Shown piece by piece: positions 3,942-27,319 of a stretch of DNA of 29,283 nt. A model generated the notes under the pieces. It ran no database searches. It was not told the DNA's origin and saw nothing but the letters and a program-made list of their open reading frames with translations. Source of the DNA: a virus; IMG/VR virus record IMGVR_UViG_3300031857_001001, positions 1 through 29,283 of that record. One strand, 5' to 3'. Made by a program: the position numbers and the translations under genes. The first letter of the stretch is position 1. Each line of letters starts with the position of its first letter.

Positions 3942-5096
3942 TCAGAAAATGTTCTTTGGTGCAACCTCTTCGGTAGCTTCTTTGGTAGGCATTACAAAAT
4001 CAGCATCAATTTTATCGTACAACTCAAGGAACGCAGTTTTAGTTTCATCGTCAAAACGATTCACACAAACTTGAATTGCCTTTGCTTTGTCATTGAAAAT
4101 AGAGTATGCGCGAAGGATATGAACCAAACGACGAGTACTGATAATTTCCTCAATACCACCATCATAGAAGGTCTTACGAATTACATCACCCCAATCAACA
4201 AGACGTTTGCAGAATTCGCGATCTTCCACACCAAGATCCAGAGCAATACCCTCAAGAATCTTTTGTTCCACGGAAGGTGCAGGATAGGACTGCTCAAAGG
4301 TCACAGGGAAACGCTCAAGGAATGCTTCATTCAGAACGTTAGTACCAATGAAACGACCATCATCAGAACCTTTGCCTTTAGTGTTTGCGGTGGCAATCAC
4401 ATTGAATCCAGCAGCAGGTTTGACAAACCGACCAATCTTTTTCAGGAAGACACCTTTACCTTCCAGAACGGATTGCAGACAGAGAATCTTGTTAGATGCA
4501 AGGTCAATCTCGTCAAGCAGCAGGATAGCACCACGCTCAAGTGCCTCAATCACAGGACCATTGTGCCAGGCAGTTTCGCCATTCACAAGACGGAAACCGC
4601 CGATCAGATCATCCTCGTCAGTCTCAATAGTAATATTGACACGGATCAATTCGCGACCAAGTTGAGCACACGCTTGCTCCACACCGAACGTTTTACCATT
4701 ACCCGAAAGACCCGTAACGAACGTAGGATAAAAGAGACGGGAGTGAATAATTTTTTTAACATCATTGAAGTTACCAAACTTGACGAAAGTAGCATCTTTA
4801 TCAGGAATAAGGTTTTGGTGATGTTCGGGAAGGACAGCAACATTCTGGAAGGAACGCTCAATCTCTTCCACACGTTCTTGAGTCACCTCAAGATTCCATT
4901 TGCCACGACCAACTTTGAAGGGGTCAAGTCGCTTAGTGACAGTAGGATAGGAAAGATTTTTAGAAGCACAATAACCCCGCACATCGGCAGAAGTAATGGT
5001 GTCCCCGAAAGTAGTTTTCAGATCGTCAATAATTTGATTGTCATTCATTTTGATACGAGGCATAACGTAGTGGTTTTGTTTTTCAACTGTAGTCAT
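3942..5096 (-). CDS. cobS: CobS-like MoxR/CbbQ-class AAA+ ATPase
   Basis: AAA+ ATPase of 384 residues. Walker A GLSGNGKT is at residues 129-136, Walker B ILLLDEID at 191-198, sensor 1 ATANT at 235-239, and arginine finger ERF at 261-263. The N-terminal 100 residues look like a phage-specific DNA- or partner-binding part (TITSADVRGYCASKNLSY resembles a small helical motif). T4-like cyanophages carry this gene as cobS, after the cobaltochelatase ATPase, yet no CobN or other cobalamin gene is visible here. MoxR-class ATPases normally work with a VWA-domain partner, and one is encoded upstream at 5921-8077. It is preceded by a weak hairpin (5105-5128) and followed by a strong terminator. The family is secure, but a role in cobalamin synthesis is uncertain. 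Confidence 0.9.
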   Translation of the reverse strand: MTTVEKQNHYVMPRIKMNDNQIIDDLKTTFGDTITSADVRGYCASKNLSYPTVTKRLDPFKVGRGKWNLEVTQERVEEIERSFQNVAVLPEHHQNLIPDKDATFVKFGNFNDVKKIIHSRLFYPTFVTGLSGNGKTFGVEQACAQLGRELIRVNITIETDEDDLIGGFRLVNGETAWHNGPVIEALERGAILLLDEIDLASNKILCLQSVLEGKGVFLKKIGRFVKPAAGFNVIATANTKGKGSDDGRFIGTNVLNEAFLERFPVTFEQSYPAPSVEQKILEGIALDLGVEDREFCKRLVDWGDVIRKTFYDGGIEEIISTRRLVHILRAYSIFNDKAKAIQVCVNRFDDETKTAFLELYDKIDADFVMPTKEATEEVAPKNIF

Positions 5097-5104
5097 TATA
5101 AGGC

Positions 5105-5128
5105 AAAAGGGAGTCGGGCAGGACTCCC
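5105..5128 (-). terminator. Hairpin with short T run upstream of the cobS-like gene (possible weak terminator)
   Basis: A perfect 7-bp stem (GGGAGTC with GACTCCC, 5109-5115 and 5122-5128) and 6-base loop is followed on the minus strand by TTTTG. The T run is short, so it may attenuate rather than stop transcription entering the cobS-like gene, whose ATG is at 5096. It could also be an mRNA-stabilising or processing hairpin. Confidence 0.5.
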
Positions 5129-5160
5129 AGTGGCCAGTTCATCAAGTGGACCCATATTTG

Positions 5161-5316
5161 TTAAATGGTGTCCCTAAATTTATATGTGTATTGTGGATAG
5201 AATTTTTTTACGATATGAGGAACTCCATATCGCCCAAGGTGTCCATTTCCTTCCCAGCGAATATAAACTATTTTTTTATCTTCGTCAACTGAATGTTGAA
5301 ATGGAAATTTGTTCAT
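5161..5316 (-). CDS. Small ORF between internal protein and cobS-like gene (51 aa)
   Basis: The ATG at 5316 opens a 51-codon frame beginning MNKFPFQHSVDEDKK and ending YTYKFRDTI. It has no recognisable domain, but the composition is protein-like: mixed charge, aromatic-rich (IRWEGNGHLGRYG), predicted beta. It starts 7 bases after the stop of the internal-protein gene and fills an otherwise empty 225-base gap between two solid genes, so translational coupling is plausible. There is no strong Shine-Dalgarno. An overlapping ATG at 5321 stops after two codons. This is a plausible gene with no assignable function. Confidence 0.5.
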   Translation of the reverse strand: MNKFPFQHSVDEDKKIVYIRWEGNGHLGRYGVPHIVKKFYPQYTYKFRDTI

Positions 5317-5322
5317 CTCATT

Positions 5323-5895
5323 TTAATTAATTTTTGCTTTAGTCTTTGCAACATCAGAACTTGAGTCTTTTGCGTGCTTCATCAAACGAATAAGTTCGGT
5401 GACTTTTTTCTTTCTCTTTTCTTCTGCTTTTTGTTCAGGAGATTTTCTTGTTATGAATAATTCTTGAACATACTCTTCTGTTGCTGCTGCTTTTCCACTA
5501 TACTTTTTAGTTTTATTCTTTTGTGAGTTTTTTTCAATCTCGCGAGAAATAAGTTTCCTCTTGAGTACCATTCTTTTACTCAAAGGAGGAGGATTACCAA
5601 TTGCATTCGCAACTGTCATTCCGATACCTTCTTCAATCTCAACATCTTCAGGAAGACCAAGTTTTTTTCCTGCGGCATTCATTCTTTTTTTAGTGTCTGC
5701 TCTTCTATTTTTTTCTGCTTCTTTTTTGTGATCTACATTGTACCCGCCCTGAAATTTAGAAAAATCGGGGAGTGGTTTTCTGTCTTTATAATCTTCATAG
5801 TCTCTACCACGAACTGCTGGGCGCAAAGAAGTCCTAGATTTGGAATAACTTGAACGCCCATAAACTTCAGTAATAAAGTCTTGAAATGTTTTCAT
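5323..5895 (-). CDS. Putative internal (capsid-packaged) protein with T4-type capsid-targeting leader
   Basis: A 190-residue basic protein with 32 Lys and 15 Arg, about 25 percent of all residues. The first ten residues, MKTFQDFITE, match closely the capsid-targeting leader of T4 internal proteins IPI and IPIII (MKTYQEFIAE), which the gp21 protease cuts after that glutamate. Further I/L-x-E sites occur at LPE (81-83) and IEE (87-89). In T4 such proteins are packed in the head and injected with the DNA, for example to inhibit host nucleases. A perfect late promoter motif (5918-5925) precedes it, fitting late expression with the prohead genes. It lies between an HExxH-VWA gene and a CobS-like gene. 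The packaging role is inferred; the molecular target of the protein is unknown. Confidence 0.75.
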   Translation of the reverse strand: MKTFQDFITEVYGRSSYSKSRTSLRPAVRGRDYEDYKDRKPLPDFSKFQGGYNVDHKKEAEKNRRADTKKRMNAAGKKLGLPEDVEIEEGIGMTVANAIGNPPPLSKRMVLKRKLISREIEKNSQKNKTKKYSGKAAATEEYVQELFITRKSPEQKAEEKRKKKVTELIRLMKHAKDSSSDVAKTKAKIN

Positions 5896-5917
5896 ATCCC
5901 TAAAATACTTTTAGAGA

Positions 5918-5925
5918 TATTTATA
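5918..5925 (-). promoter_or_regulatory. Late promoter motif TATAAATA overlapping the stop of the VWA gene
   Basis: A perfect TATAAATA whose internal TAA is the stop codon of the VWA-protein gene (5921-5923). It lies about 23 bases upstream of the internal-protein ATG, so that gene can be expressed late independently of the VWA gene. Confidence 0.7.
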
Positions 5926-8077
5926 CCACAAGAGAAATGAACTCCCCAAGAACTTTTTTATTCAATTTTTTGGTTTTTAGTGATTTCACAAAGGCAGATT
6001 TAATTTGTGCCTTTGTTGCAGATTCCTTAACTTCAAAGTCACAATCCTGAGATAGTGCCGAGGAGGACAATCCAAAATATGCGTGATATGCAGAATTAGT
6101 GATTGTAAAACTTTTGAATTTTCTCCAATCATTCTGCATAATCCGATACTGATCATCGTAGTTATGATAAAGACTCATAAACCTACTTGCATCTTTACTG
6201 GCAATAATACGAATTCCCACAAAATTAACAGAGGTGAATTTATCTTTCAAGTTTTTGATGATAGTATCCGTAAATTTATGATACTCATATCCGAATCGGT
6301 AGGTAGTGCCCAACTTACGATCACGCAGAAAAACCTTTTCGTTAATTGCACGAACTCCAATATAGGAGTTTGATTCTCCCCTCTTGATTTCAACGTGATA
6401 GGGAATCGGTTGAGATTCTCCATCAGTTAGAACAATGCAATGAACTTTTTGCAGTCCGTTATTCTTTTGGAATACTGGGATAATTTCGTGCAAGCAAATA
6501 AGAGACTCATTCAAAGGAGTTCCAGACAGAGACAACCTGGAAGGAATGCTATATTTTGACGAATAGCAATTACTAAAGCAAGATGCAAGACGCCAGATAT
6601 TTACCATTTGCTTTTCCAGTTCATTTCCAGACACTTTGCTTGTGAGCAAGTTCATCAAAGCAAATCTATCATCAACAGACAGGATACCATCCTTTTTTGT
6701 ATAATGGCATTTCAAATCTGCACGGATATACTTTCCAGTTTGGTAATCATAAGTGCAAGAATTCCATTCATTAGTAAAGGCATAAACCTCGAAAGGAATA
6801 GATACTTTCCTGCAGAACCAAATCAAGTTGAAAAGTTGTTTGCACGTATCTTGCATCACATGGCTCATAGAACCAGACCAATCAAGAATAAAAATCAAAC
6901 CGTGATTTTTACCATCAGGAAGAACAGATACCTTCTTGAAGAGATCTTCACAGTACATATAACTATGCAGTTTTGAAGTATCAAGAACTCCAGTTCGCGC
7001 AGTAGTAACCCTAGCATAAGAATCTGCTGCTTTGCGGCATTCAAACTCTTTTACCAAATAACTAACTTCTTTTTGTGCTGAGGTCTTAAATTTACGGTAT
7101 TCCAAATCTACGCTTTGAAACGCATCAGAAGATTCTCCATAAGCATTTTTGTGCTTAATATTTTCGTGGCGAAAATGAGTATCAATTTCTTTGTGAATTT
7201 CTGTATTCTTTGCGATCACAGTATCAAGATTAACCTTTGGCACTTCAACATAGATGCTTTCAGATCCAAGCATATTTGCAAGATTTTTGATATTATCCGC
7301 AAGAGAATCTACAGTTCGGAGTTCAGGTTCTTCTTGATTTTTGTTTCCATCAAAAGAAACTTCATCGCCTTTAGCAGATCCAGATTGATTGGTCTCTTGT
7401 TGCAAATTTGGAGAAGATGCCTCATTTGTTTCATTTTCTCCTTCATTCTTTTCCTGCAGATCATTACTTTGATCACCAGAAGAACCAGATTCTTTCTGGT
7501 TCTCAACATTATCAATCTTTTCCTGTTCTTTTTGCTTTTTGCAATACTTATAAAGTTCTTCGGAAGCAATCAGAACGTCAGCAAATGTTTCTGCTACCGC
7601 AATCAGATCAACAATTTCCTGTTCTTCTGCAGTGAAATTCAGATCAATAAAATTGCCAATTTTAAAGTAAAGATTTACTTTGTCCGCAAGACTGAACTTA
7701 GAAATATCTTCGTCGCCAATAGAGAAGAAATCTTCCGCGTGAAGTTCTTTATACCCATTGAAAAAACTTTTAGGAGATCCCTGATACTTCCTCTTGCAGA
7801 GTTTTTCAACCCTAGCATCCTCAACAATATTCACATATTGCTGAGGAACTTTACAATTAACGGACCAATCCTCATTAGGAGTCCAAAGAGCGTGAGAAAT
7901 CTCATGCAAAACAAGCATAGTATAAATGCTATCACTGGCCTTCTCCCAAAGAGGCAGCGTCAGGCATCGCGTTTGAACATTAAAACAGGCGGTCTCTACC
8001 TTTTTATGTTCAACGATAATATCTTCAGTTGCCAGAAGGCGGGCAAGAGATCCTTTAATTTCAAGATTAACTGTCAT
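5921..8077 (-). CDS. CobT-like protein: HExxH metallopeptidase motif plus C-terminal VWA domain
   Basis: A 718-residue protein. Near the N-terminus LHEISHALWTP gives an HExxH zinc motif (His58, Glu59, His62), and NIVEDARVEK offers a third acidic ligand at Glu86, 24 residues on; this resembles the segment of CobT and related putative metallopeptidases. A Glu/Gln/Asn/Ser-rich linker spans about residues 185-255. The C-terminal VWA domain has a complete MIDAS: DWSGS (Asp399, Ser401, Ser403), Thr520 in SGTPLNES, and Asp552 in LTDGES. VWA proteins with such motifs pair with MoxR-class ATPases, and the CobS-like gene lies two genes downstream in the same unit. A possible promoter lies at 8101, behind the gp46 terminator. 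No metal binding or protease activity has been shown for it. Confidence 0.85.
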   Translation of the reverse strand: MTVNLEIKGSLARLLATEDIIVEHKKVETACFNVQTRCLTLPLWEKASDSIYTMLVLHEISHALWTPNEDWSVNCKVPQQYVNIVEDARVEKLCKRKYQGSPKSFFNGYKELHAEDFFSIGDEDISKFSLADKVNLYFKIGNFIDLNFTAEEQEIVDLIAVAETFADVLIASEELYKYCKKQKEQEKIDNVENQKESGSSGDQSNDLQEKNEGENETNEASSPNLQQETNQSGSAKGDEVSFDGNKNQEEPELRTVDSLADNIKNLANMLGSESIYVEVPKVNLDTVIAKNTEIHKEIDTHFRHENIKHKNAYGESSDAFQSVDLEYRKFKTSAQKEVSYLVKEFECRKAADSYARVTTARTGVLDTSKLHSYMYCEDLFKKVSVLPDGKNHGLIFILDWSGSMSHVMQDTCKQLFNLIWFCRKVSIPFEVYAFTNEWNSCTYDYQTGKYIRADLKCHYTKKDGILSVDDRFALMNLLTSKVSGNELEKQMVNIWRLASCFSNCYSSKYSIPSRLSLSGTPLNESLICLHEIIPVFQKNNGLQKVHCIVLTDGESQPIPYHVEIKRGESNSYIGVRAINEKVFLRDRKLGTTYRFGYEYHKFTDTIIKNLKDKFTSVNFVGIRIIASKDASRFMSLYHNYDDQYRIMQNDWRKFKSFTITNSAYHAYFGLSSSALSQDCDFEVKESATKAQIKSAFVKSLKTKKLNKKVLGEFISLVV

Positions 8078-14852: not shown

Positions 14853-16286
14853 TCACATAAGGTTTTTGACTGCAACACGTCTGTAGTAACGGTTTGCATT
14901 AACCTGAAGTCTTCCAAGACCCTGCTCAGTGCCTTCTGCAAATGGGTTTGCAACAAGACCATAACGGGTCTTAAAGCCAATCTTAGGCTGGAAGCTGTTC
15001 TCACCAACGGCACGAACCATTTGGAGAGGAACATAAGGACAATAGAAGATTCCTGCGTCATAGGGGGAAGAACCCTTATAACCGACAACATAGTACTGGT
15101 TGCCTGGAGTTCCGTTCGAGGAAGTCAGGTTAGCAGAATATGGGTCAATATAGACACGGAATTTGCCCATCAAAGTACCAGCAAATGTATTGCCAGTATC
15201 ATCAACGTTAAGGTTAGCGTTGAGTGCGGGGGTGTAGTCAAGAACACCAGCCATGGTCAGTGCTGAAGCAACGTCAGCAGAGCACATGACAATGTTGCCC
15301 TTTCCTCTACGAGTTCTTTGAGCGATTGCGTTGGCATCACGCTCAATTTGGAACAGAAGACCCTTGAACTTCTCAACTGACCAACGACCGTTGGAGTCAA
15401 CGTCCAGGTCAAATACGCCAGGAGTTGCTACGTTCTGTACAGCACCCTGTTCAGCAACCTTATAGATGGTTCTGATAACTTCGCGGTTGATTTCGGCAAG
15501 AATCTCTGTAGAGAGAATATTTGCCAATTCCGCTTCAGCATTCAGACCGTGGATTGCCTTAAGGTCTTGAGCAAGCTCAAGTGAATACTCGGCTTTCAGA
15601 GCGCGTGACTTTGCGGTAACGGTGACTTTCTCGATTGAGAATGCCATCTGGTTAAATTGACCAGAATCACCACCAAGTTGCTCTGAGTCGCCAGTTACCA
15701 TTCCCTGACCAGCATCGTATGCAAGATTATCTCCTGCACCACCTACTGGGTTCAATACTGATGGGTTGGTTCCTGACTGTGCAGTAGTACCCAGACCAGA
15801 AGTAACTGAACTGAATCCTGCATTTCTGTCGAAAGCGGCATTCTGACCAGAGAATGCAGAATCTACTTCATTGTAGAAAGCTTCGGTGCCACTTTGTCCA
15901 GTGTAACGTGAACGCATTGCGAAGATGAGTCCTGTAGGACCGCTCATTGGTTGAACGCCAGCGAGGTCATAAGCGACCAGGTTAGGCATTGAACGACGAA
16001 TGAGGGAAATCAGAACGGGGTCAAAACCTGCGGTAGGACCGCCAGCAGCAGAAGTACCTCCGAATGCTCCCGAACCAGCAGCAGCGTTACCTGAGTTGGT
16101 GATTGGGGATTCCATCAGGTTGCCGATGCCACCTGAATTAAATGCTGATTCTTCTCTTAAGAATTTTTCTTGGTTTTCTAACAGGACAGCGGTTACAGCT
16201 CTACGATGAGAATCTTTGATTGGATCAAGACCCTGATAGTCGAGAAGGGGTGCCCACTTTTCCTGCAGATGCTCTGAATGGAACAT
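14853..16286 (-). CDS. 23: Major capsid protein gp23 (precursor)
   Basis: It forms the hexamers of the head. It is 477 residues (T4 521). It begins MFHSEHLQEKWAPLLDYQGL, and QPMSGPTGLIFAMRSRY is a hallmark of T4-type capsid proteins. The likely gp21 maturation site is LME after Glu59 (L-x-E rule; T4 cuts after residue 65), which would remove an N-terminal peptide rich in charged residues. No late motif lies in the 52-base gap upstream, so transcription probably reads through from gp22, with a leader AAGG as Shine-Dalgarno. It ends in a very strong terminator, fitting a highly expressed gene. Confidence 0.97.
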   Translation of the reverse strand: MFHSEHLQEKWAPLLDYQGLDPIKDSHRRAVTAVLLENQEKFLREESAFNSGGIGNLMESPITNSGNAAAGSGAFGGTSAAGGPTAGFDPVLISLIRRSMPNLVAYDLAGVQPMSGPTGLIFAMRSRYTGQSGTEAFYNEVDSAFSGQNAAFDRNAGFSSVTSGLGTTAQSGTNPSVLNPVGGAGDNLAYDAGQGMVTGDSEQLGGDSGQFNQMAFSIEKVTVTAKSRALKAEYSLELAQDLKAIHGLNAEAELANILSTEILAEINREVIRTIYKVAEQGAVQNVATPGVFDLDVDSNGRWSVEKFKGLLFQIERDANAIAQRTRRGKGNIVMCSADVASALTMAGVLDYTPALNANLNVDDTGNTFAGTLMGKFRVYIDPYSANLTSSNGTPGNQYYVVGYKGSSPYDAGIFYCPYVPLQMVRAVGENSFQPKIGFKTRYGLVANPFAEGTEQGLGRLQVNANRYYRRVAVKNLM

Positions 16287-16338: not shown

Positions 16339-17538
16339 TCAATTTTTGCGGAATGCTGAAAGTGTCTTGAGGTATGCAGCCATTGATCCAGAAATTGCTT
16401 CTGGAGCACTATCTACACCTTCAGACAAGGTTTCAGTTTTTGCATTAGGAGAAACTACTCTTGAAGGAAAATATGATTCCTTCAATGTCTCCAGTTTTTC
16501 ACGATATTCTCTTTCACTTTCAAACTCAACACTTTCGGCAAGTGAAGCGAGCTTGTCCTTCTGAGTGTCTGCAAGACCTTCAGCGACTTGTTCAAAGATT
16601 CCATCAGCAACCGACTCTGCGAGACGCTTGTTAAGGGAAACGTTTTTCTCAATTTGCTCGTTGAGTTTTGTCTCCATTTCATCAAGTTTTTCTACCATAC
16701 TCTCAAGTACATCATATTTATCTTCAGGGATTGATACATAATGTTCTTCAAAAAGACCCTTCATTCCTTGTAGGAATGATTCGGTCATTTCGGTCTTAAG
16801 ACCTTGTTCAATGACAAGTGCGTTCTCAGTGAACCACTCATCAGACACATACTCAAGGTATGCATCAACACGCTCGCTGAGTTCTGCCTTGATTTCCTCA
16901 ACTTCTTCAGCAAGAGCAACTGCATATTGCTCTTCTAGAGCTTCTTTGATGTCACCCACCTTAGAGCGAAGTGCAGCTTCAAAGATTGTGCGTGCCTTTT
17001 CTTGGAACTCTTCGGAGAGTTCTTCACCTTCAAGAAGAGCATTTACATCTTCTTCAATGCTGAACTCTTCTTCCATTTCCTCATCTTCATCCTCTTCATC
17101 TTCATCATCTTCTTCTTTTTTGCCCTTTTTCTTTCCTTCTTCCTCTTCTTCCTTATCTTCTTCCTCTTTTGCCTCTACGATTTCATCCTCACCAATCTCT
17201 TCATCCTCATCAGTCTCTTCTAAGAGTTCTTCGTCTTCATCATACTCAACATCTTCTTTCTTCATACCTTTCATTGGATCCGCTCCCTTGGCACCCTTAT
17301 TGACAACATCTCTTACTTGCTTGAGTGTTGCTCCAGGTGTTTTAAGTTTTGCAGAATTATCATCTGATTTATAATTTTCTGGTGTTGGTCCACCAAGATC
17401 TTCCCAACCTGCAGTTTGCCCATCAGGAATATTTCCTGATAATTTTGGCATTGCATCTCCCGCCTTTGCATTTGCATTTACAGCGGTTCTGGATTGCTTT
17501 GTGCCTACTTCCATTTCTTGTAAATCTCCACGAGACAT
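16339..17538 (-). CDS. 22: Prohead core scaffolding protein gp22
   Basis: Main scaffold protein of the prohead core, degraded by gp21 during maturation. It is 399 residues, well above the T4 length (269). Excess length comes largely from a run of Asp/Glu/Lys near residues 100-165, in which nearly every residue is charged; coiled-coil helices follow (about 170-330). The C-terminus AYLKTLSAFRKN resembles the end of other gp22 proteins. Many L-x-E and I-x-E sites could be gp21 cleavage sites. The leader has GGAGAG ahead of the ATG at 17538, and a late promoter motif lies at 17574-17585. Identification rests on position between gp21 and gp23 and on composition, as the family diverges fast. Confidence 0.92.
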   Translation of the reverse strand: MSRGDLQEMEVGTKQSRTAVNANAKAGDAMPKLSGNIPDGQTAGWEDLGGPTPENYKSDDNSAKLKTPGATLKQVRDVVNKGAKGADPMKGMKKEDVEYDEDEELLEETDEDEEIGEDEIVEAKEEEDKEEEEEGKKKGKKEEDDEDEEDEDEEMEEEFSIEEDVNALLEGEELSEEFQEKARTIFEAALRSKVGDIKEALEEQYAVALAEEVEEIKAELSERVDAYLEYVSDEWFTENALVIEQGLKTEMTESFLQGMKGLFEEHYVSIPEDKYDVLESMVEKLDEMETKLNEQIEKNVSLNKRLAESVADGIFEQVAEGLADTQKDKLASLAESVEFESEREYREKLETLKESYFPSRVVSPNAKTETLSEGVDSAPEAISGSMAAYLKTLSAFRKN

Positions 17539-17595: not shown

Positions 17596-18246
17596 TTACA
17601 ATGAATTTAAGAACTCATTGAACAACGATAATTTGTACTCTTCAAGAATACCTTCGTCAACTAAACTATTTATTTTTTTCTTTGTATTGTATGCTGCTTT
17701 TTCTCTTAGGACTCCACCTTCCCAACACCACTCTTTTCCTTCCATAATTCCCTGGACAAATGCATCAGGTGCAGAGGGATCGGCAACAATATCAGCAGCA
17801 GTGGCAAGCATAAAATCTTCGCCTACTTCCTTGTATCCTCTGTTATTTTCTCTAAGTGAACCAATACCCCGAGAGGAAACGCCGAGAGTAACGCCATCAC
17901 TCAAAAGTGCCTCTGCAATTTTGCCCATTGGTGTGGATAAAATTTGAGCCTTGCCTACAAAATTATTTCCTTTTTGATAGAGTTCAACAATTTTATGAGA
18001 AACTCTATCAAGATTTACAGTAGGGCCATCAGGATGTCCAAGTTCTCCTAATGCACGTCCTTTTTGAACGTAATTTTCATTATACCTCTTGACCTCCCTC
18101 TCCATAATTGCAAAGGGATACATTCTTCCATTACGATTTACACATTCACTCTGAAGAAATACTCCTTGAATATAAAGATTTTTTTTACCGTTTTTTTCTT
18201 CGGTAATGACCTTTACCTTTTCTACTTCTTCTCTGATGAGTTTCAT
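17596..18246 (-). CDS. 21: Prohead core protease gp21
   Basis: Serine protease (herpesvirus-protease-like fold) that cleaves capsid and core proteins after I/L-x-E and then itself. It is 216 residues (T4 212). Motifs are NRNGRMYP (38-44), GELGHPDGPTVNL with likely catalytic His71, and GVSSRGIGSL with the nucleophile at Ser124 or Ser125; ATAADIVADPSAPDAFV (148-164) is also conserved. Its ATG overlaps the stop of the Ser/Thr-rich gene (TAATG), so the two are coupled. Likely substrates here include gp22, gp23, the gp67-like protein and the internal protein at 5323-5895. Confidence 0.95.
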   Translation of the reverse strand: MKLIREEVEKVKVITEEKNGKKNLYIQGVFLQSECVNRNGRMYPFAIMEREVKRYNENYVQKGRALGELGHPDGPTVNLDRVSHKIVELYQKGNNFVGKAQILSTPMGKIAEALLSDGVTLGVSSRGIGSLRENNRGYKEVGEDFMLATAADIVADPSAPDAFVQGIMEGKEWCWEGGVLREKAAYNTKKKINSLVDEGILEEYKLSLFNEFLNSL

Positions 18247-25573: not shown

Positions 25574-27319
25574 TTAATTACAATTCCAACGACGAAGTGC
25601 TTTATTAATTCTTGAGTCTGGATCTCTTGCAGTTTCTGCCGATGTTAATCTTTTTTTCATTCCTCCCATTCTTCTGCAAAAATTTTTTTTTCTTTTTGCT
25701 CTTTTTCCTGTAGGATTTTTTTCAGTTACTGCAGTTTGTAGTTTTGAACCTGGATTTTCTCTGCGATATGCATTAACTGCTGCAGGACTTAATCCGTCAG
25801 TCTTATCTTTACGATTGACTGATTGCCAGTCTTCATCAATTTCAACTTCTTCCCCCATAGGTTTTACATAATTTCTATTTGGACCTGGTTTAGATGCGCT
25901 TCCTCCCTGAGGTCCAAATGCTTGGATTAATGGTTGTCCTGGTTGAATTTCAGAAACCGAATGGTAAAGTACATTACATCCTGGGTAAACTTTTTGAAGT
26001 TCAACATTAATATCTTTACGAGTTGGAAGTTTTACTTGTGGGAAAAACATTTTAAGTGAATAATATTTCCCTCTCCAGTTCAAAGTAACTCCAACTACAT
26101 TGCCAGTTTGTGCTTGCAATCTTGTTGCTTCTTGTACTTGTGATTTAAATCCTTTGATTGGTTCTGGTTTGATAATATCAACAACTTCTGCAAATGTATT
26201 TCCATTTGCATCTTCAATGGTCACATCTTCTTTTTTTACGCACCTGTTATATTTCTTGCCAAAAAGTTTCTGAGTACCTTTTTTTTCATATCCAGACCAA
26301 CATTTCATTTCGTCCATGATTCTATCAACCAATCTTTGTTCTTCCATCTCCCCACTTGCCACATAGTCTGCAGCAGTATCAATATAATCTGCTGCCTTAG
26401 TGATTTTTGACTGAACCCATGCTTCCAAATCACCTTCACCTTTACCAACCTTCTTTTCTAATCTTTTAAGTGCATTGTGAATAGTTTTTAATTCGGATCT
26501 TGCCATAGAATACTCTTCATCCTTCACAGAAACTTTATCCCATGCCTTTTCGCCATATGAACATTCAGATCTTGACTCCCTCTTATCACATAGAGGACAG
26601 TATCTTTCTTCTTCGTGCATAGTTGCCTCCGATTTAGTTCCCCAGTTTGCAGCACCAACTTTACGACATTTTACTAGTGCTCCAGAAGCATATGCACTTG
26701 GCCAAACATCATATCTAGACTTTACCTTATTATAGCAAGCATCTTTTTTACCACTACCTTTACCTGGTTTGTCTTTGACTTCTTGTAGGTCCATTTCTTC
26801 AGTTCTTACGTTAGTTGGTTTTGTGCCGCCAGTTTTTTGTGGTTGATTTGGGTCTTGAATATTTTTTCTACGTCTTGCTGCTTCCTCTTCGTCTTTTGAA
26901 AGTGCTCTTTTCATTTTAGAACTTCCGCATTTTGGTGTGGAAGTTTGACCCTCTTGACGAGCACATGGTTTGCCTGCCCACTTTCCCCCAAGTTGAACCC
27001 ATCCACTTTTACCATCTGAGGATTTGGATTTACCAAACCAATCACGAAGACCTTCATCGCCCGATTTTGTTTCTTCTTTTACATCTTTGAATTTTTTATG
27101 ATGCCTTTTAGCATCTGCCTCCATTTTCTTTAAACGAGTATAATAATCTGGAATTTCATCAAGATGTTGTAAAGCAATATATTTCGCCAAATCATGATCT
27201 TGAGTATGTTCGTGCTCAATAGGTTCTCCCATATCAAGTTGATTTTGCACAAAAGAAACTTCTAACCGATGCTTCTTCGCTATTTGTTCAACCGTCTTAT
27301 GGGATTTTAATTTTTGCAT
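25574..27319 (-). CDS. Modular Cys/Lys-rich protein with several phage cassettes (581 aa)
   Basis: It lies between gp16 and gp17, where T4 has nothing comparable. At least six distinct segments are visible: 1-75, DUF5661-like (MGEPIEHEHT, ALQHLDEIPDYYTRLKKME); 89-160, GWVQLGGKWAGKPCA then LSKDEEEAARRRK; 190-228, KKDACYNKVKSRYDVWPSAY then KCRKVGAANWG; 272-325, helical, with EAWVQSKITKAADYIDTAAD; 335-363, MKCWSGYEKKGTQKLFG; 395-466, LNWRGKYYSLKMFFPQVKLP then VSEIQPGQP; and 505-581, GLSPAAVNAYRRENPGSKLQ, KRAKRKKNF and INKALRRWNCN. From memory, these units recur in other marine phage proteins in other combinations. No catalytic residues are evident. A late motif lies at 27342. It may be a virion component or packaging accessory; function is unknown. 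Confidence 0.75.
   Translation of the reverse strand: MQKLKSHKTVEQIAKKHRLEVSFVQNQLDMGEPIEHEHTQDHDLAKYIALQHLDEIPDYYTRLKKMEADAKRHHKKFKDVKEETKSGDEGLRDWFGKSKSSDGKSGWVQLGGKWAGKPCARQEGQTSTPKCGSSKMKRALSKDEEEAARRRKNIQDPNQPQKTGGTKPTNVRTEEMDLQEVKDKPGKGSGKKDACYNKVKSRYDVWPSAYASGALVKCRKVGAANWGTKSEATMHEEERYCPLCDKRESRSECSYGEKAWDKVSVKDEEYSMARSELKTIHNALKRLEKKVGKGEGDLEAWVQSKITKAADYIDTAADYVASGEMEEQRLVDRIMDEMKCWSGYEKKGTQKLFGKKYNRCVKKEDVTIEDANGNTFAEVVDIIKPEPIKGFKSQVQEATRLQAQTGNVVGVTLNWRGKYYSLKMFFPQVKLPTRKDINVELQKVYPGCNVLYHSVSEIQPGQPLIQAFGPQGGSASKPGPNRNYVKPMGEEVEIDEDWQSVNRKDKTDGLSPAAVNAYRRENPGSKLQTAVTEKNPTGKRAKRKKNFCRRMGGMKKRLTSAETARDPDSRINKALRRWNCN

What the first reader, a model, noticed from the sequence alone, without database searches (positions are those of the whole stretch)
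5323..5895. N-terminus nearly identical to the T4 internal-protein capsid-targeting leader
Seen: MKTFQDFITE, against MKTYQEFIAE of T4 IPI and IPIII, followed by a 25 percent Lys/Arg protein, with a perfect TATAAATA in front. Known: the T4 leader targets proteins into the prohead and is cut by gp21 after I-x-E; the mature proteins are injected. Inference: this is an injected effector of a marine cyanophage, with an unknown host target, possibly anti-restriction or nuclease inhibition, as for T4 IPI.
Basis: partly seen in the sequence, partly recalled or inferred. Interest (0 to 1): 0.75.

Follow-up and report, generated by a model that had tools for sequence, protein, structure and literature searches.

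The report
Capsid-delivery leader on cyanophage basic polyprotein
A small, strongly basic protein of a virus of ocean cyanobacteria starts with the same kind of ten-residue tag that phage T4 uses to load proteins into its head, and this tag turns out to sit on dozens of unrelated marine phage proteins, so it may help predict which proteins these viruses carry and perhaps inject.

Summary
The ORF at 5895..5323 (-) is real, and its start MKTFQDFITE is a T4-type capsid-targeting sequence. The four residues that matter in T4 (4, 7, 8, 10) are kept. The leader codon pattern occurs in at least 120 viral stretches, against 0 for the same codons in reverse order, 0 with Phe4 changed to Ala, 3 with Glu10 changed to Asp. 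The residue after Glu10, left free by the pattern, is small in 43 of 60 distinct leaders. The leader heads at least 34 unrelated bodies (SAM lyases, ADP-ribosyltransferase-like proteins, kinases, basic proteins). In published virion proteomes, 5 of 6 leader-bearing S-CREM2 proteins, including its SAM lyase, and the S-SM1 and S-SCSM1 nucleotidyltransferases are in virions; 2 of 3 S-SCSM1 matches are not. The candidate is leader + three basic modules joined at IEE and VQE. Relatives between the same two genes carry these modules plus a SAM lyase, which the candidate lacks. Best reading: a capsid-targeted, gp21-processed internal head polyprotein at a cargo-exchange locus. Packaging is likely, injection plausible, host target unknown. 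New variant of a known kind.

The parts
5866..5895 (-). capsid-targeting leader, residues 1-10 MKTFQDFITE, predicted gp21 cut after Glu10
5629..5865 (-). basic module 1, residues 11-89, ends in EDVEIEE (predicted cut after Glu89)
   Evidence: shared with L008 and L149; pI 9.7
5461..5628 (-). basic module 2 (GIGMT module), residues 90-145, ends in EEYVQE
   Evidence: recurs in large modular proteins (L009, L010, L013-L018, L150-L153) and in the locus relatives
5326..5460 (-). basic module 3 (LFIT module), residues 146-190; stop codon 5323-5325; relatives continue here into an SAM lyase (L149), a divergent SAM-lyase-like domain (L148, by eye) or another tail (L008)
5918..5925 (-). TATAAATA, possible late promoter
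   Evidence: not specific to leader ORFs
5921..8077 (-). VWA-type 'peptidase' (phrog_459), upstream bracket of the cargo locus
3942..5096 (-). CobS/MoxR-type AAA ATPase (phrog_249, PF07728), downstream bracket
17596..18246 (-). gp21 prohead protease (PF03420), the presumed processing enzyme
   Evidence: E 6.2e-40
16339..17538 (-). gp22 prohead scaffold (PF25623), the presumed core partner of the leader
   Evidence: E 1.7e-80
14853..16286 (-). gp23 major capsid protein by gene order and resemblance to T4 gp23 (by eye), with NLME|S as its likely propeptide site
   Evidence: sequence, T4 gp23; the site is my reading, not tested

Best explanation
The ORF encodes an internal head protein precursor. 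Its first ten residues bind the prohead core as the T4 leader does, so the protein is enclosed when the shell forms. The phage's own gp21 protease then removes the leader after I-T-E (new N-terminus Val11) and probably also cuts after I-E-E (Glu89) and perhaps V-Q-E (Glu145), giving small strongly basic peptides next to the packaged DNA. The gene sits at a cargo-exchange site between the VWA and cobS genes, where relatives put the same leader and modules in front of an SAM lyase; in this phage the enzyme is absent and only the basic carrier part is made. Shown: the leader and its key residues, modular junctions, the locus, virion presence of leader-bearing proteins in other cyanophages. Inferred: packaging of this protein, cleavage at each site, entry into the host.
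For: Key T4 residues 4, 7 (targeting) and 8, 10 (processing), from passages of PMC9026906, are all kept; viral-collection controls. All 3 Glu10->Asp exceptions have another I-x-E within 3 residues. The residue after Glu10, free in the pattern, is A/S/C/G in 43 of 60 distinct leaders against 27% background. Where a body that follows a leader recurs in another context, [ILVM]-x-E lies exactly at the junction in 19 of 65 places, against 0, 0, 0 at offsets -4 to -2 and 3, 0, 0 at +2 to +4. Virion data: S-SM1 T4-GC190 (PMC3037559 section 26) starts MKKFSAFLNE|A; S-CREM2 leader proteins gp6, gp13, gp14, gp136, gp154 are all in Table 3 of PMC10665884; S-SCSM1 NMNAT starts MKSFLQFLKE|A and is a virion protein. 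gp21 and gp22 are in the same fragment. L149 has the candidate's leader type and all three modules (with one more module between) plus SAM lyase at the same locus.
Against: No virion data exist for this phage. In S-SCSM1 only 1 of 3 leader-pattern CDSs is labelled a virion protein. T4 core proteins that gp21 cuts several times mostly leave the head (PMC9026906 section 2.5), so several cuts could mean a scaffold peptide rather than an injected one. V-Q-E deviates from the T4 L/I-x-E rule. 46 of 65 junctions lack an exact match (many are alignment slips or leaders not recognised by the filter; not cleaned up). The S-CREM2 authors warn of co-purification.
Confidence: 0.75

Rival explanations
1. 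Prohead core (scaffold-type) protein: the leader brings it into the core, gp21 degrades it into small peptides and most of these leave before or during DNA packaging, as with T4 gp67/gp68/gp22. It helps head assembly or DNA condensation and is not an injected effector.
For: Several internal cut-type sites and a basic, simple make-up; T4 core proteins are cut many times and removed. No gp67/gp68-like gene was recognised in this window (by eye).
Against: Leader-bearing relatives at the same locus carry an enzyme domain (SAM lyase) rather than only a scaffold; modular basic proteins SSCSM1_29, 89, 92 and 93 are labelled virion proteins in S-SCSM1.
Confidence: 0.3
2. Decayed cargo gene: the ORF is what is left after the SAM-lyase domain was lost from an L149-like ancestor; it is still packaged but does nothing of its own.
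For: The candidate ends at DVAKTKAKIN, where L149 runs on into the SAM lyase; same locus. No SAM lyase elsewhere in the fragment.
Against: All three modules are intact and 41-66% identical to those of diverged phages; L008 ends its modules in a different tail without a Pfam hit, so the modules exist without the enzyme more than once; the GIGMT module recurs in large modular proteins.
Confidence: 0.2
3. Injected DNA-binding or nuclease-inhibiting effector in the sense of T4 IPI: the basic peptides enter with the DNA and protect it or block a host nuclease.
For: pI 10.0, net +20; T4 IPI precedent (PMC9026906 passages); SAM lyase, an anti-restriction enzyme, at the same place in relatives.
Against: No similarity to IPI beyond the leader; no known family for the modules; no test of injection.
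Confidence: 0.3
4. The match to the T4 leader is chance or has another role.
For: It is only ten residues.
Against: Controls 0, 0 and 3 against at least 120; small-residue preference after Glu10; 5 of 6 in the S-CREM2 virion.
Confidence: 0.03

Closest known systems
T4 internal proteins IPI, IPII, IPIII and their capsid-targeting sequence
   Same: Leader residues 4, 7, 8, 10, N-terminal position, cut-type site, basic protein, gp21 and gp22 in the same genome
   Different: Body unrelated; internal I-x-E/V-x-E junctions and exchangeable modules; T4 IPs have no such modular build that I know of (recalled)
T4 Alt (virion-packaged ADP-ribosyltransferase)
   Same: Enzyme carried in the head and cut by gp21; leader-bearing ART-like proteins exist in the marine set
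   Different: The candidate has no enzyme domain; the ART model made here was too poor to use
S-CREM2 gp6 SAM hydrolase/lyase (virion protein)
   Same: Leader MKDFDSFLEE, then SLEE|SSLSR and a SAM lyase, found in virions by mass spectrometry
   Different: Carries the enzyme the candidate lacks; different gene position
T3 SAM lyase / Svi3-3 (PF23780)
   Same: Cargo domain of locus relatives: Pfam 1e-17 in L011, invariant G, Y, E, Q and acidic residue, fold match Z 12.1 to T3 SAM lyase 8bb1 and 8.2 to Svi3-3 6zm9
   Different: Not present in the candidate
T4 core proteins gp67/gp68
   Same: Small and cut by gp21
   Different: No sequence resemblance seen; gp67 is acidic

Membership tests
T4-type capsid-targeted internal protein | N-terminal leader with aromatic residues at 4 and 7, I/L at 8, E at 10 | tested here: met
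   F4, F7, I8, E10; residue roles
T4-type capsid-targeted internal protein | Phage encodes gp21-type protease and gp22-type scaffold | tested here: met
   PF03420 6.2e-40 and PF25623 1.7e-80 in the window
T4-type capsid-targeted internal protein | Basic mature protein | tested here: met
   pI 9.7-10.2 for each module
T4-type capsid-targeted internal protein | Present in the virion, leader removed | not testable with these tools
   only by analogy: leader-bearing proteins of S-SM1, S-CREM2, S-SCSM1
T4-type capsid-targeted internal protein | Injected into the host | not testable with these tools
   none
IPI/IPII/IPIII protein families (homology of the body) | Sequence similarity beyond the leader | tested here: not met
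   bodies do not cluster at E 1e-4
S-adenosylmethionine lyase (PF23780) | SAM lyase domain | tested here: not met
   no match for the candidate; met in L011, L029, L030, L039, L067
gp21-processed polyprotein | L/I-x-E at module borders | tested here: inconclusive
   ITE and IEE fit, VQE does not fit strictly; border enrichment in relatives 19 of 65; no cleavage data

The most novel reading that the evidence does not exclude
Marine T4-like phages carry a general, sequence-readable head-delivery system: one short leader loads dozens of exchangeable proteins, and the same I/L-x-E cut sites string several basic modules and an enzyme into a single polyprotein that the prohead protease splits inside the capsid, so one gene delivers several peptides plus, for example, an anti-restriction SAM lyase at the moment of DNA entry. 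The candidate is the enzyme-less form.
Probability: 0.5. Interest if true: 0.85.

Novelty: new variant of a known kind. Interest (0 to 1): 0.72.

Why it matters
Which proteins a marine phage injects is largely unknown (my judgement). A leader that can be read from sequence turns this into a list that can be checked against virion proteomes, and it bears on the doubt that the S-CREM2 authors left open (packaged or merely co-purified). It also links anti-restriction SAM lyases to delivery with the DNA and suggests that T4 internal proteins are one branch of a much larger set.

Tried and rejected
TATAAATA as support for the finding: not enriched before leader ORFs. Named-phage relatives of the candidate by tblastn: only 7 Sinorhizobium records at E 0.1 in a clamp loader, taken as chance. 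Solved structures for the candidate: none up to E 5; for the SAM lyases none relevant by sequence, found by fold only. ART family model: mean pLDDT 53.7, not used for a fold search; ART profile against solved structures: only RNA 2'-phosphotransferases at E 0.056 and worse. Peptidase_S77 in the leader contigs: 13 of 79 records (L035 left out as it shares its contig with L038), most too short to tell; of the 5 records over 100 kb, 4 have it. The narrow leader regex first used on S-CREM2 did not list gp14 (GTG start), gp136 (Phe at position 8) or gp154 (limit on upstream open frame); the class was widened after I had seen the N-termini of the 52 virion proteins; without Phe at position 8 the count is 4 of 5 instead of 5 of 6. 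S-CREM2 gp12 (Cas9) has a leader-like KPLRFASFMAE|A at residues 15-25 but was not counted. In S-SM1 only L144-L146 (150 of 174 kb) were scanned for leaders. Clustering joins families through shared modules, so 34 bodies is a lower bound. A weak resemblance of module 1 to the SSM2_065 family (KRRMKAAG) was seen by eye only.

Literature: 10 searches. 'capsid targeting' with 'cyanophage' gave one paper, the T4 review; PMC10665884 holds no 'capsid targeting'. Only open-licence PMC papers were searched, so absence from print is not shown. What I saw of papers: PMC9026906 passages and one section; PMC3037559 passages and section 26; PMC7877911 passages; PMC10665884 passages and sections 18 and 19; PMC9602691 passages; PMC9146016 one passage; all others search listings only.

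Full report
What is there. The window is a 29,283-base viral fragment whose genes, all on the minus strand, follow T4-like cyanophage order from about gp15/gp16 through gp23 to gp45/gp44 (compared with S-SM2). The portal protein is 80.6% identical to that of Synechococcus phage S-SM2. The ORF 5895..5323 encodes 190 aa beginning MKTFQDFITE. It lies between a VWA-domain 'peptidase' gene and cobS, where S-SM2 and S-SM1 have only ORFs of 49 and 47 aa. A second contig, L007, carries the identical gene.

The leader. According to PMC9026906 (passages; section on gp21), residues 4 and 7 carry targeting, 8 and 10 processing, gp21 cuts after L/I-x-E, and Asp at position 10 blocks cutting. The same codons in reverse order gave 0, Phe4->Ala 0 despite twice the codons, Glu10->Asp 3; in those 3 of 3 another I-x-E ends within 3 residues of position 10.

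Which ORFs bear it. I read 80 of the loci (83 ORFs). In 66 of 83 the frame is open for 12 codons or fewer before the ATG, so the leader is mostly at real starts. Clustering of the bodies (E 1e-4, at least 25 columns), with the window, four S-SM1/S-SM2 proteins and three T4 proteins added, gives 39 clusters, 34 of them with contig ORFs. Pfam names some: S-AdoMet lyase, ART-PolyVal/PARP, zeta toxin, adenylate kinase, DPBB lytic transglycosylase, DUF5661, DUF6321; PHROG 2667 'internal head protein' matches 4 of 51 members scanned, best E 0.0013. 60 of 80 loci hold a homologue of at least one of 42 S-SM2 proteins, 3 of them only through the modular GC119 protein. The residue after Glu10, which the pattern leaves free, is A, S, C or G in 43 of 60 distinct leaders (background 27%, binomial p 8e-13; positions 12 to 20 reach 7 to 21 of 60).

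Does the leader predict the virion? Three published data sets bear on it. S-SM1: PMC3037559 section 26 names T4-GC190, a cytidylyltransferase, among the virion proteins; its S-SM1 protein begins MKKFSAFLNE|A. S-CREM2: Table 3 of PMC10665884 (read) lists 52 virion proteins; the record has 219 numbered CDSs. Of 10 pattern matches in the genome, 6 fall on annotated starts: gp6 SAM hydrolase MKDFDSFLEE, gp13, gp14 kinase VKRFDAFLTE, gp136, gp154 cytidylyltransferase MKNFSSFLTE, gp175. Five of 6 are in the virion (hypergeometric p 0.003); gp175 (55 aa) is not. The residue class was widened after I had seen the N-termini; without the Phe at position 8 the count is 4 of 5. S-SCSM1: 3 matches on annotated starts; the NMNAT (MKSFLQFLKE|A) is a virion protein, SSCSM1_30 (MKTFKQFMSE|S) and SSCSM1_261 (dCMP deaminase) are not so labelled. 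The S-CREM2 authors could not exclude co-purification (section 19); the leader offers a loading mechanism, and 'capsid targeting' does not occur in their text.

The body. The candidate is three basic modules: residues 11-89, 90-145 (GIGMT) and 146-190 (LFIT), pI 9.7 to 10.2. Their borders read IEE|G and VQE|L. The GIGMT module recurs in large modular proteins of other phages (L009, L010, L013-L018; L150-L153), most of them beside a leader-bearing cytidylyltransferase gene. In S-SCSM1 the neighbouring modular proteins SSCSM1_89 and 92, and SSCSM1_29, a relative of the window's own 27319..25574 protein (38% over 284 columns), are labelled virion proteins.

The locus. Leader ORFs stand between the VWA gene and cobS in the window, L007, L008, L011, L029, L042, L057, L063, L067 and L095 (10 of the 18 sequences looked at; L012 is cut off at its 5' end, L037 and L071 have leader ORFs before cobS with the VWA gene on the other strand, L043 has an ORF there without an N-terminal leader, L039 and L090 do not reach the VWA gene, S-SM2 and S-SM1 have no leader ORF) and in L148 and L149. 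In L011, L029 and L067 Pfam finds an SAM lyase; L057, L063 and L095 carry close copies. L149 reads leader, module 1, an extra module, GIGMT, LFIT, then an SAM lyase; its GIGMT-LFIT part is 66% identical to the candidate and its leader plus module 1 41%. L008 has the same modules and another tail. So the candidate is the enzyme-less form of a shared architecture.

SAM lyase check. In 15 aligned domains the residues that I match to Svi3-3 Gly56, Tyr58, Glu69, Gln104 and Glu105 (roles from passages of PMC7877911) are invariant: G64, Y66, E81, Q109, D110 (the pairing, of Glu69 with E81 above all, is my reading). The AlphaFold model of L011 is poor overall (pLDDT 59) but 60-88 over this domain. Its best fold matches are T3 SAM lyase and Svi3-3 (Foldseek, E 0.003, none below 0.001; VIA-align Z 12.1 and 8.2, with unrelated folds at 6.9 and below). 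Named isolates with the domain include S-CREM2, S-H34, S-N03 and P-TIM68.

Cut sites. The same SAM-lyase start (S/T-S-L-x-R) follows the leader directly (MKTFKEFINE|SSLSR) or an internal linker (DLSE|TSLTR, EIDE|SSLSR, SIQE|TSLNR). Over all bodies that recur in a second context, [ILVM]-x-E is exactly at the border in 19 of 65, one residue off in 9 and 8, and in 0 to 3 at most other offsets; peaks of 7 and 14 at -6 and +6 I put down to leaders followed by a second site. This is the pattern expected if the prohead protease cuts at both kinds of site; it is not proof of cutting.

Reading. Packaging via the leader is well supported by analogy and sequence; cutting at Glu10 is likely; cutting at Glu89 is plausible and at Glu145 less so; injection and any host target are inference.

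Noticed in passing
L162 41626-41835 (SSCSM1_93) and L043, ORF between VWA gene and cobS: Leader-like sequences at the C-terminus (RTFKEFLEYIE at the end of SSCSM1_93, a labelled virion protein; GKTFSQFMMECYSLT at the end of the L043 ORF), as if a targeting tag could also sit at the far end.
   Followed up: no
L158 7704-10313 (S-CREM2 gp12): A Cas9-annotated protein found in S-CREM2 virions has a leader-like KPLRFASFMAE|A at residues 15-25.
   Followed up: partly
L021 30761-31984, L146 48256-49419, L162 38819-40048: The cytidylyltransferase/NMNAT-like protein T4-GC190, with matches in 534 phage records (382 over at least 80% of the query), begins with the leader in S-SM2, S-SM1 and S-SCSM1.
   Followed up: partly
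L027, L049, L050, L060, L065, L073, L074, L079, L093: Nine leader-bearing YHGT proteins resemble ADP-ribosyltransferases or RNA 2'-phosphotransferases, recalling T4 Alt.
   Followed up: partly
window 25574-27319 (-): A modular protein of unknown function between gp16 and gp17 with DUF5661 and DUF6321 and acidic I-D-E linkers; a relative is a labelled virion protein in S-SCSM1.
   Followed up: partly
window 3942-8077 (-): The 'cobS' and 'peptidase' genes look like a MoxR-type AAA ATPase and a VWA protein with a DWSGSM motif, a pair of its own rather than a cobalt chelatase (motif reading from memory).
   Followed up: no
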